64,000 nucleotides of DNA from Mesorhizobium sp. WSM3626. GTDB taxonomy: Bacteria; Pseudomonadota; Alphaproteobacteria; Rhizobiales; Rhizobiaceae. The position numbers and the translations under genes were made by a program. Below the pieces are notes generated by a model. It made no database searches, was not told where the DNA came from, and saw only the letters and a list, made by a program, of their open reading frames with translations. Below are positions 21,527 through 24,358 of the stretch, piece by piece. Each line of letters opens with the position of its first letter. Position 1 is the first letter of the stretch. The stretch lies in NCBI RefSeq assembly GCF_000513935.1, contig NZ_AZUY01000011.1:42251-106250 (forward strand), read 5' to 3'.

Positions 21527-21552
21527 TTCGCGCCTCGGCACTGATTTGTTAC
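21527..21552 (-). promoter_or_regulatory. Candidate autoregulatory SigF-type promoter
   Basis: On the minus strand GTAACA (21552-21547) is separated by exactly 16 bases from CGAA (21530-21527), about 20 bases before the GTG start of the ECF sigma gene. It fits a GTAACC-N16-CGAA pattern with one mismatch. Confidence 0.6.
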
Positions 21553-21736
21553 GTGGCCGGCGAAATAATGTCCAAGCCAAACTACGGGCAAATCACGAAA
21601 GTTTGCGGGAGGACCCGCGAAATTCCCTGACGGTTTCCCTGGTTCCCGGCTCAGGCGTGAGGAACGGCGCGGACCAAGCCTTGATTGACGTAAGGTAAAC
21701 CCTTCTGTAGCGTCAAAGGATCGGAGGGAGGCCGAA

Positions 21737-21874
21737 ATGGATTTCATTGAACGCATTTTTGGATTTTCTCCCGACAATGGCTCGGGAACTTTCGAGAGCG
21801 GCCTTGTCATTGCGGCCATAGTCTTTGTCACTGCCATCTACTTCTACAGAAGACGGGGATCACTGAAGAAATAG
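21737..21874 (+). CDS. 45-residue single-pass membrane protein
   Basis: A short gene beginning MDFIERIFGFSPDNGSGTFE, then one hydrophobic helix (SGLVIAAIVFVTAIYFY) and a basic tail RRRGSLKK. Topology should be N-out/C-in by the positive-inside rule. It has a very strong ribosome-binding site, GGAGGGAGG, at 21723-21731. Composition and start signals look genuine, but I do not recognise the family. It lies between the divergent ECF sigma operon and the unknown two-gene module and could belong to either regulon. Confidence 0.7.
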   Translation: MDFIERIFGFSPDNGSGTFESGLVIAAIVFVTAIYFYRRRGSLKK

Positions 21875-21946: not shown

Positions 21947-22996
21947 ATGGCAGGATCTCTGGTCAACCACGTCAGAACCGCGGCACTGCTGTTGTTCGCC
22001 GCCGAATTCTGGAAGCGTCTTGCCGTCGGGCTGAAGGTGCTGTTTGCGACGATTCGCATGCTGCTGTGCCGGTTGGCCAAGCGCCAGCGGCTGCCAGGCC
22101 CTGCGCAGAACGATTGCTGTATCCAGCTGCCGCCCGACATCTACAAGCGCGCCGATCCTCTTCTCTATGCCCAGTACTATCTTATGGCGCAGGGTCTCGC
22201 GGTCACCTGGGACAATCCCGACATCGACATTTTCGACGGCGCCGCGCCAGTCACCGGTGCGCTGCAGCCCTCTCGCACCTATCGCGTTCGCGTGCGTGTC
22301 TGGAACGGGTCCTATGATGCGCCAGCCGTCGGCGTCGGGGTGGCGCTGTCCTACCTGTCCTTCGGCGCACAGACCGTTTCCCGGCCGATCGCCAACCTCG
22401 CCGTCAATCTCGGGGCCAAGGGCACGATCGATTGCCCTGCCTATGCCGAATTCAGTTGGACCACGCCCGCCACCGGCGGCCATTACTGCCTGCAAGCACA
22501 GCTTTCCTGGGCCGATGACGCCAACCCCGGCAACAACCTCGGCCAGAAGAACGTCAACATTGCCGAGATGCGCTCACCGGCAAAGTTCTCCTTCAGCGTC
22601 CGCAACGAGGCCTCGGTCGTCCGGCGTTTCCAGATCGAGGCGGACTGCTACGGCCTGCCGAAGCTGCAACCATGTACCCCGCCACGCGGCCAAGGTCGAG
22701 ACGAACGCACGGACACCCCGCAGCCGAGGCTCGCGGAGAGCAAGGCGCGCTGGGCCAAGGCGCTGGAGGAACAGGCCTATGGCCGGTTTCCCGTTCCCGA
22801 TGACTGGTCGGTCAGGATCGTTCCAAGAACGCTTTCACTGCAGCCCCGCCAGATAACCGAGATCACCGTCGAGATCGAACCGAGGGACGCCGCCTTCCGT
22901 GGCTCAAAGGCCTTCAACGTCCATGTCTTCACGATCGGCGAAAGCGGATCACGCACCTTGACCGGCGGCGTGACGCTCATCGCCACGAAAGGCTGA
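21947..22996 (+). CDS. Uncharacterised protein with CARDB/Ig-like domain
   Basis: 349 residues, function unknown. The N-terminus has two amphipathic or hydrophobic stretches (RTAALLLFAAEFW and VLFATIRMLLCRLA) and then a CC pair (about residues 57-58). From about 75 to 190 the pattern ITFDG/RTYRVRVRVWNGSYDAPAVG...ADDANPGNNLGQKNV looks like a CARDB-type Ig fold (cell adhesion-like; N-P-G-N-N-x-G-Q-K-N is typical). A second beta-rich region follows (about 280-349), where RIVPRTLSLQPRQITEITVE is again Ig-like. No catalytic motif is seen. It is followed after nine bases by another unknown gene, so they form a pair. Confidence 0.65.
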   Translation: MAGSLVNHVRTAALLLFAAEFWKRLAVGLKVLFATIRMLLCRLAKRQRLPGPAQNDCCIQLPPDIYKRADPLLYAQYYLMAQGLAVTWDNPDIDIFDGAAPVTGALQPSRTYRVRVRVWNGSYDAPAVGVGVALSYLSFGAQTVSRPIANLAVNLGAKGTIDCPAYAEFSWTTPATGGHYCLQAQLSWADDANPGNNLGQKNVNIAEMRSPAKFSFSVRNEASVVRRFQIEADCYGLPKLQPCTPPRGQGRDERTDTPQPRLAESKARWAKALEEQAYGRFPVPDDWSVRIVPRTLSLQPRQITEITVEIEPRDAAFRGSKAFNVHVFTIGESGSRTLTGGVTLIATKG

Positions 22997-23005
22997 GGCG
23001 CTCCG

Positions 23006-24358
23006 ATGGCCTACAAGCACTATACGAGCTGCTTTCTCTATCCGGCCGGTGGCAAGCCCTACAATGAGGCCGACCGGCTGGCTTTCCTCGCCGGCCAGGC
23101 GCTGCAGATCATCGTCATCACCGGGCTGGCGGCCGCCTTCGGCTTGCTGCTGGGGCCGGTCGGCGCAGCACTTGCCGCGGCAATCGCGTTTCTGGCGTCC
23201 GCCACCGCGACGATCGACAAGGCCGCCGGGGAATGGCTCAACCATCGCCTGGTCTGCCTCGACAAGGACAATCCGAAATGCGCCGTCGGCATCGTCTCCT
23301 ACAATCCGTTCCGCAGCGATCTCGGCGCCTTCGACAACGGCCAGTATTTCGACATCATACTGATGCCGCATCCGACGACTGAAATTCTCAACGCCGAAAC
23401 CAATGAGGCGGCTTTGGCCGCCGCCAATCGCTACAATGGCGACGGCACCGTCGTCGCGGAATTCGCCGCCAACATCACGGCCCATCCGGCGAACGACATT
23501 CTCAATGACGGCTTTCAGGGTCATGAACTGCTGTTGCCGCGCGATGACCTGAAGACGGATCTGGGATACGCACCCGCCGACGATCATGCCCGCTGGGCCC
23601 TGCACTGCGAGGCCGAGGGTGACTTCTGGATCAAGATGCGCCAGTGGGCGCCGGCCATCGTCATCCTGCTGACGGCGGCTCTGGTCGTCACGGCGGCCGC
23701 GGCGGCTGCCGGTGCCAGTGTTGGGGCGGCTGTCGGCTGCGCCATAGGGTCGTTCTTCCTGGGTGCGCTGGGCTGCGCCATCGGCTCGTTCCTGGGAGGA
23801 TTGCTCGGAGCGGCCATTGGCGGCGCCATCGGCGGAGCGGCGTCCTACTTCGGCGGGGTCAAGCCGGTCCTGCAGGGATTGTTCAACTGGAATCCCGGCA
23901 ATGTCGAGGACGCCAATGTCGGCGACAAGGCGCTCGGCCCCATCAGGATGGGCGATCATGTCGCCGTCCTCGGCGAACATGTCTATGACGGCTATCACAA
24001 GGGCTGGCACGAGTTTCATCCGCTGATGGCGGTGGTCAAATTCGATGCGGCGGCCGGTGTCGACGCAAGACACTATCTTCAGTGGAATCCGGATTTTCCC
24101 GACACGGGCACGGTCCCGCCCAAACCGCCAGGCGAAGCCATCGACCTCACCGCGCAGGATATGCGTGACGGGCTGGGCAGCGCCGCGTTCAGGACACGCT
24201 GCGAGAATCTGCGCAGAACCTGGTGCGCCATGCTGAACGAAGCGTTCGATCCGGAGACCAAACGAGCACAGCAGGGGCTGGACCAGCGCTGGACCATTCA
24301 TCCGATGGTCGATGGTTGCATCCCGCAGGAGCAGCCACCAGCACCGCATATCGGATGA
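23006..24358 (+). CDS. Uncharacterised membrane protein with glycine-zipper region and EFHP motif
   Basis: 450 residues, function unknown. Hydrophobic segments lie at about 31-70 and 212-283. The second is a long alanine/glycine-rich glycine-zipper stretch (AAVGCAIGSFFLGALGCAIG, then GGLLGAAIGGAIGGAAS), the kind found in pore-forming or membrane-inserting proteins. After it comes a short block at 317-346 with DHVAVLGEHVYDGYHKGWHE then FHPLMAVV; Asp328, His331, Trp334, Glu336 and His338 could bind a metal or a ligand. I have seen similar D-x-x-H...E-x-H-P blocks in other uncharacterised bacterial proteins but cannot name the family. It forms a pair with the CARDB protein upstream. Confidence 0.65.
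   Translation: MAYKHYTSCFLYPAGGKPYNEADRLAFLAGQALQIIVITGLAAAFGLLLGPVGAALAAAIAFLASATATIDKAAGEWLNHRLVCLDKDNPKCAVGIVSYNPFRSDLGAFDNGQYFDIILMPHPTTEILNAETNEAALAAANRYNGDGTVVAEFAANITAHPANDILNDGFQGHELLLPRDDLKTDLGYAPADDHARWALHCEAEGDFWIKMRQWAPAIVILLTAALVVTAAAAAAGASVGAAVGCAIGSFFLGALGCAIGSFLGGLLGAAIGGAIGGAASYFGGVKPVLQGLFNWNPGNVEDANVGDKALGPIRMGDHVAVLGEHVYDGYHKGWHEFHPLMAVVKFDAAAGVDARHYLQWNPDFPDTGTVPPKPPGEAIDLTAQDMRDGLGSAAFRTRCENLRRTWCAMLNEAFDPETKRAQQGLDQRWTIHPMVDGCIPQEQPPAPHIG

What the first reader, a model, noticed from the sequence alone, without database searches (positions are those of the whole stretch)
21947..24358. Uncharacterised two-gene membrane module: CARDB-like protein plus glycine-zipper/EFHP protein
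Two adjacent genes of unknown function lie together. One has CARDB-type Ig domains; the other has a long glycine zipper and a compact block with Asp328, His331, Glu336, His338 that looks like a ligand or metal site. Glycine zippers are typical of pore formation. Association with a beta-sandwich partner suggests a surface or toxin-like assembly. No known family fits both.
Basis: inference. Interest (0 to 1): 0.6.

Follow-up and report, generated by a model that had tools for sequence, protein, structure and literature searches.

The report
Membrane protein pair with Ig-like partner
Two neighbouring Mesorhizobium genes encode a real, co-inherited but optional pair, one protein built of antibody-like folds and one membrane protein that shares an unnamed short building block with proteins from unrelated sources; what the pair does is unknown, and the evidence does not point to a pore or toxin.

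Summary
A (21947-22996, 349 aa) and B (23006-24358, 450 aa) are real adjacent genes under purifying selection (median dN/dS 0.17 and 0.09). A has two predicted beta-sandwiches; a CARDB domain is the top structural match of the first (Z 12.4, tied with other sandwiches), but no CARDB profile detects it. B has two hydrophobic hairpins; the second carries a glycine zipper. D328/H331/E336/H338 are as stated.

The pair travels together: all 9 genomes with A among 101 relatives, plus one distant genome of the order, have B directly downstream, in three Mesorhizobium clades at three loci. It is rare and can be lost; one genome keeps only B remnants.

New: the D-x2-H-...-E-x-H-P block recurs in small proteins that Pfam and NCBIfam do not name ('EIHP' here), on IMG/VR contigs and an Alicyclobacillus plasmid (hhalign 95%). 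Homology beyond that hairpin is suggested, not proven. The zipper is absent from clades II and III, so pore formation is unlikely to be the shared function.

Most likely an accessory membrane-anchored ligand- or metal-binding complex; that function is inferred.

The parts
21947..22996 (+). Gene A, 349 aa: N-terminal helix plus two Ig-like beta-sandwiches
21950..22078 (+). A residues 2-44: long N-terminal helix, moderately hydrophobic in clade I, amphipathic by eye in clade II; no classical signal peptide by eye
22178..22570 (+). A residues 78-208: Ig-like sandwich; top VIA-align row is the CARDB domain 3idu_B (Z 12.4, rmsd 2.0, 107 aligned), tied with other sandwiches
22580..22990 (+). A residues 212-348: second beta-sandwich with a helical insert (258-277); weak NPCBM_assoc/NEW3 similarity in 5 of 13 copies, not in the window's own
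23006..24358 (+). Gene B, 450 aa: membrane protein with two hydrophobic hairpins and soluble segments between and after them
23078..23215 (+). B residues 25-70: first hydrophobic hairpin
23246..23620 (+). B residues 81-205: conserved segment RL-x-CL ... LHCE, proposed N-terminal half of an EIHP-type beta domain (homology not proven)
23642..23860 (+). B residues 213-285: second hydrophobic hairpin with glycine zipper (zipper only in clade I and G146)
23957..24043 (+). B residues 318-346: conserved EIHP hairpin with D328, H331, E336, H338, P339 (23987-24022)
24290..24319 (+). B residues 429-438: second conserved block WTIHPMVDGC

Best explanation
A and B are a closely spaced accessory gene pair that most likely builds one membrane-anchored binding complex. 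B is held in the membrane by two hydrophobic hairpins. Its water-exposed part is a small beta domain (EIHP type), apparently interrupted by the second hairpin, whose conserved D/H/E/H cluster and second HP-x-x-DGC block form a metal- or ligand-binding site. A, two Ig-like sandwiches behind a membrane-associating N-terminal helix, docks on B and supplies a recognition or scaffold surface. In clade I the hairpin has become a glycine zipper, which probably tightens helix packing or self-association. Shown: the two genes, their co-conservation, A's predicted sandwich folds, and the shared EIHP hairpin. Inferred: complex formation, metal or ligand binding, membrane side, and biological role.
For: Adjacent in all 9 genomes holding A among 101 relatives, in G146 and in the 5 named Mesorhizobium records (L025 appears to be the same record as G022, contig length 434691). 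Spacing is 9 bases in clade I, 8-9 in clade II, a 4-base overlap in clade III, 1 in G146. Purifying selection. A model: mean pLDDT 67.9, pTM 0.42, both sandwiches mostly above 70; top VIA-align row the CARDB domain 3idu_B at Z 12.4. EIHP family against B: hhalign 95.2%, E 2.9e-8 and 95.5% against B's C-terminus; control against A 0.3%; with the motif masked on both sides 0 of 200 column shuffles reach the score. In Alicyclobacillus an EIHP domain shares one chain with two N-terminal hydrophobic segments (by eye) and a C-terminal stretch with weak hits to beta-sandwich families.
Against: No usable structure of B (model mean pLDDT 37.3). The N-terminal half of the beta domain does not stand out alone: 11 of 200 shuffles reach the score, and with clades II, III and G146 only, 33 of 200 and an alignment of 9 columns. 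The first EIHP sequences were chosen by B's own motif, so part of the profile score is by construction, and two of those three are nearly identical. EIHP relatives look exported (signal peptide read by eye), whereas A and B lack one. A profile of the EIHP relatives found no match in 100 genomes, B's own included (no positive control there). CARDB is tied with other sandwiches and is not in the 50 rows shown by Foldseek. No binding, complex or phenotype data.
Confidence: 0.4

Rival explanations
1. Pore-forming or toxin-like surface assembly: B inserts its glycine zipper as a pore and A is the docking or receptor-binding part.
For: Strong glycine zipper in clade I and G146; beta-sandwich partner.
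Against: Zipper absent in the 5 clade II and III copies although B and A persist; no PADLOC match; no immunity or secretion gene among the neighbours profiled; no classical signal peptide by eye.
Confidence: 0.1
2. Envelope-stress module of the neighbouring ECF sigma factor and NrsF-type anti-sigma factor: A and B are part of that regulon or its sensor.
For: ECF and NrsF genes lie divergently next to the pair in the 8 clade I genomes; Caulobacter sigma-F with NrsF answers heavy metals (PMC3511200, passages seen).
Against: A sigma-F-like site (1 mismatch) faces the ECF gene at 21552 on the minus strand; none with 2 or fewer mismatches (spacers 15-17) lies between 21508 and 21946 facing A and B. 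In clades II and III and G146 tblastn found no such genes within the stretches held (5 kb for L034, 18-19 kb for the others).
Confidence: 0.1
3. The EIHP likeness is convergence on a short motif; B is an unrelated membrane family and A a generic Ig scaffold.
For: Significant similarity is confined to about 30-37 columns; the N-terminal half is not significant; selection by motif inflates the score.
Against: Masked profiles still beat 200 of 200 shuffles. L065, L066 and L069, found by tblastn and not by the motif, keep D, H, W, E, H, P. The order of conserved segments agrees by eye.
Confidence: 0.25
4. Injected effector without signal peptide (for example type VI), with A as its adaptor.
For: No signal peptide by eye, hydrophobic hairpins, patchy distribution.
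Against: No secretion-apparatus, immunity or chaperone family among the neighbours profiled. Presence of an injection system elsewhere in these genomes was not tested.
Confidence: 0.05

Closest known systems
CARDB domain (Pfam PF07705; solved 3idu, 2kl6)
   Same: Predicted fold of A residues 78-208; Z 12.4, rmsd 2.0, 107 aligned residues, 19% identity
   Different: Tied within 1 Z with other sandwiches; no PF07705 sequence match in 13 copies at E<=1, nor in the whole genome at E<=10; no signal peptide by eye
NPCBM_assoc / NEW3 domain (PF10633)
   Same: Weak matches in 5 of 13 copies of A, best E 1.1e-4; in the copy viewed the match falls in the C-terminal sandwich
   Different: That copy is below the curated cut-off (22.4 against 24.4 bits); the window's own A has no match at E<=1
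Unnamed EIHP domain family (IMG/VR contigs L061-L068; Alicyclobacillus sp. SO9 plasmid protein WP_198854289.1)
   Same: G-x-W-V-x-D-x2-H-...-W-N-E-I-H-P type hairpin; hhalign 95.2%, E 2.9e-8
   Different: In those proteins the domain is continuous and appears exported by eye; in B a membrane hairpin would interrupt it and two hairpins anchor it
VARTIG hypervariable Ig modules of Thermococcales (PMC8416519; abstract and section list seen)
   Same: Ig-domain protein in an accessory multigene unit of unknown role
   Different: Different organisms and gene make-up; A and B are two conserved genes under purifying selection, not hypervariable

Membership tests
CARDB (PF07705) | Match to the Pfam profile | tested here: not met
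   0 of 13 copies at E<=1; no match in own genome at E<=10 while 12 of 14 control genomes ring
CARDB (PF07705) | CARDB-type beta-sandwich fold | tested here: inconclusive
   Predicted model only; 3idu_B top at Z 12.4 and 2kl6 Z 11.7, but tied with 5x7g 11.9, 1ggt 11.6 and others; Foldseek's 50 shown rows hold no CARDB entry
NPCBM_assoc / NEW3 (PF10633) | Score above curated cut-off | tested here: not met
   L029 copy 22.4 against 24.4 bits; window A no match at E<=1
EIHP domain (named here) | G-x-W/H-V-x-D-x2-H ... E-x-H-P hairpin | tested here: met
   hhalign 95.2%, E 2.9e-8; motif masked 0 of 200 shuffles
EIHP domain (named here) | N-terminal strands with RHEAD-x-D-x-H and V-x-E segments | tested here: inconclusive
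   N-terminal half alone: 11 of 200 and 33 of 200 shuffles reach the score
Glycine-zipper pore formers | Zipper conserved with the protein family | tested here: not met
   GxxxG 9-11 in 7 of 7 clade I rows and 6 in G146, but 0-1 in 5 of 5 clade II/III rows
Pore-forming toxins | Membrane permeabilisation | not testable with these tools
   No experiment
Sigma-F / NrsF regulon | GTAACC-N16-CGAA promoter facing the operon | tested here: not met
   Between 21508 and 21946 no site with at most 2 mismatches (spacers 15-17) on the + strand; one with 1 mismatch faces the ECF gene
Known anti-phage defence proteins | PADLOC profile match | tested here: not met
   0 families at E<=1 for 7 proteins

The most novel reading that the evidence does not exclude
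The D-x2-H-...-E-x-H-P block marks an undescribed small metal- or ligand-binding beta domain shared by Bacillota, IMG/VR contigs and Alphaproteobacteria. In B it is split by insertion of a transmembrane hairpin, and A plus B are the two-gene form of an assembly (membrane hairpin + EIHP + Ig sandwich) that Alicyclobacillus encodes as one chain.
Probability: 0.4. Interest if true: 0.5.

Novelty: new variant of a known kind. Interest (0 to 1): 0.35.

Why it matters
It gives two orphan protein families a defined unit and links one to a conserved block, and perhaps a domain, that Pfam and NCBIfam do not name, with an exact residue set to test. A soluble beta domain interrupted by a transmembrane hairpin would be an unusual architecture. 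It also corrects the reading of the glycine zipper as the functional core: the zipper varies while the D/H/E/H block hardly does.

Tried and rejected
Pfam, NCBIfam, PADLOC and PHROGs scans: nothing above a curated cut-off for A or B in the rows shown, and the PHROGs tape-measure and Pfam YidB hits lie mainly on glycine-rich or hydrophobic stretches. PDB sequence searches: nothing useful. Plasmids were searched by tblastn with the window's A, G146's A and L029's B (no match), phages with L029's B only (five hits at E 0.2-1, taken as chance). Viral contigs with A or with B's C-terminus: no relative. B's C-terminal profile in 199 genomes of the order matched only G000 and G015.

Weak genome hits set aside: G100 (glycine-rich piece of a 4336-residue frame), taken as low complexity and not opened; G170, G307, G380, G393 and G482, G707, matching only A's last domain. 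Two of these six were opened (L051 of G170, L053 of G707): each is a different protein with one C-terminal hydrophobic segment and an ABC-type ATPase ORF beside it, by eye.

The B model (mean pLDDT 37.3) was not used for fold search. Foldseek's whole-model list for A is led by protein 4.2, RbmA and alpha-2-macroglobulin with low TM-scores and was not used to name a family. A cysteine-pair idea (C92 and C201 lost together in clade III) was dropped because G146 has T92 with C201. Charges flanking the hairpins only weakly favour the soluble parts being cytoplasmic, with no positive charges around the second hairpin in clades II and III. Literature: searches for motif strings found nothing relevant (listings only); a search joining CARDB, OB-fold, domain of unknown function and Mesorhizobium gave one protease survey (listing only); two searches were seen as listings apart from PMC8416519 and PMC3511200. 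An OB-fold reading of the EIHP domain is recalled and untested; it was dropped.

Full report
What is there. The window lies in a Mesorhizobium-like genome: the five named relatives found are all Mesorhizobium. Gene A (21947-22996) and gene B (23006-24358) are complete ORFs on the + strand, 9 bases apart. Codon comparison over 8 clade I genomes (28 pairs) gives median dN/dS 0.171 for A and 0.091 for B, so both are real genes and B is the more constrained.

Co-conservation. In 101 relatives B matched 10 genomes and A matched 9. All 9 genomes with A have B next to it, including G050, whose B was missed but is the next ORF. Of the other two B hits, G047 holds only B remnants with no A found, and G100 is a match on a glycine-rich stretch that I set aside unopened. 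In 397 genomes of the order, A's profile matched 7 and B's 4; full pairs were in G000, G015 and the distant G146, where A and B are again adjacent. A's profile found no further full-length match in 289 genomes of the class, 200 of the phylum (which again held G015) or 100 relatives of G146; B's C-terminal profile found only G000 and G015 in 199 of the order. These samples overlap and were drawn from larger groups, so absence elsewhere is not shown.

Three clades, three loci. Clade I (the window and 7 other genomes) lies between an ECF sigma/NrsF operon and a solute-binding protein gene followed by ABC-transporter-like ORFs (the latter by eye). Clade II (L029, L030, L034) lies beside DUF992 proteins; in L030 and in the remnant locus L033 a TPR protein and an MFS transporter flank it too. 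Clade III (L031, L032) lies upstream of an ArsR-type regulator and an AHSA1 protein (family names tested for L029, L030, L031 and L033 only, the rest by eye). In G047 the clade II locus (TPR, DUF992, MFS) holds B pieces in two frames, covering profile positions 127-344. The pair is therefore accessory, and its neighbours do not explain it.

Protein A. AlphaFold2 (13 sequences, mean pLDDT 67.9, pTM 0.42) gives an N-terminal helix 2-44 and two beta-sandwiches. VIA-align's top row for residues 78-208 is the CARDB domain 3idu_B (Z 12.4, rmsd 2.0, 107 aligned, 19% identity); a glucanotransferase (11.9), a second CARDB entry (11.7) and a transglutaminase (11.6) are within 1 Z and so tied. The Ig-like sandwich is secure, the CARDB label is not exclusive. 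The CARDB profile itself does not match. The second sandwich resembles NEW3 domains weakly in some copies.

Protein B. Two hydrophobic hairpins (25-70 and 213-285) flank a conserved soluble segment. In 13 aligned copies D328, E336, H338, H432, P433 and G437 are invariant and H331 is kept in 12; for G146 the alignment of the C-terminal block is doubtful, since that ORF ends differently. The second hairpin of clade I has 9-11 GxxxG in 7 of 7 rows (shuffle means 3.1-3.5, 0 of 1000) and G146 has 6 (14 of 1000), but the 5 clade II and III rows have 0-1. The zipper is real yet not shared. The AlphaFold2 model of B is too poor to use (mean pLDDT 37.3).

The EIHP link. A DNA pattern for D-x2-H-x2-W-N-E-I-H-P found 3 IMG/VR contigs, all encoding the same kind of small protein (two of the three nearly identical), with CVxVxGTIVDA...RHEADGDTHGWLK...LVFE(I/V)VC...TGxxVxDxxHxxWNEIHPV. 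Searching with one of them added L065 and L066 and a hypothetical protein on a plasmid of Alicyclobacillus sp. SO9 (L069). These three keep D, H, W, E, H and P without having been selected for them. L061's protein has no Pfam or NCBIfam family at E<=1 and no PDB relative of note. hhalign to B: 95.2%, E 2.9e-8 over 37 columns; control with A: 0.3%. Because the first members were chosen by the motif, I masked it on both sides: the score 24.7 still exceeded all 200 column shuffles (maximum 20.4); with clades II, III and G146 only, 19.6 against 18.9; the N-terminal half alone did not stand out (11 of 200; 33 of 200, the latter on 9 columns). So the hairpin is shared; the whole domain, split by B's second membrane hairpin, is a proposal. 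An EIHP profile search of 100 genomes matched none, B's own genome included; there was no positive control, but it is a result against close kinship.

Regulation. A sigma-F-like site (GTAACA-N16-CGAA) at 21552 on the minus strand faces the ECF gene; it is one of 2 sites with at most 1 mismatch at spacer 16 in the window, both strands (motif from PMC3511200, passages seen). Its two elements are kept in the 8 aligned clade I genomes. No such site faces A between 21508 and 21946, so the pair is not placed in that regulon.

Verdict. Real, co-conserved, accessory and uncharacterised; best read as a membrane-anchored binding complex. Toxin or pore formation is not supported. Interest is moderate, mainly for the unnamed EIHP block and its possible interruption by a membrane hairpin.

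Noticed in passing
window 21737-21874, + strand: Small 45-aa ORF (MDFIERIFGFSPDNGSG...) with one hydrophobic segment by eye, kept upstream of A in the DNA alignment of 8 clade I genomes; no Pfam match.
   Followed up: partly
window 21552, - strand: Sigma-F-like promoter (GTAACA-N16-CGAA) facing the ECF sigma/NrsF genes, both elements kept in 8 clade I genomes.
   Followed up: partly
window 21685-21714: Block TTGACGTAAGGTAAACCCTTCTGTAGCGTC, well conserved in 8 clade I genomes just upstream of the small ORF; possible promoter or operator.
   Followed up: no
L061-L068, L069: EIHP-domain proteins on IMG/VR contigs and an Alicyclobacillus plasmid; L061's has no Pfam or NCBIfam family, L069's has a C-terminal stretch with weak beta-sandwich hits.
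   Followed up: partly
L033 8520-9011 and just upstream: G047 holds only B remnants in two frames and no A was found, at the same TPR/DUF992/MFS locus as clade II: the pair can be lost.
   Followed up: yes
L050 10829-11995, - strand: G146's A copy carries a strongly hydrophobic stretch (residues 246-281) near where other copies have a helical insert in the second sandwich.
   Followed up: no
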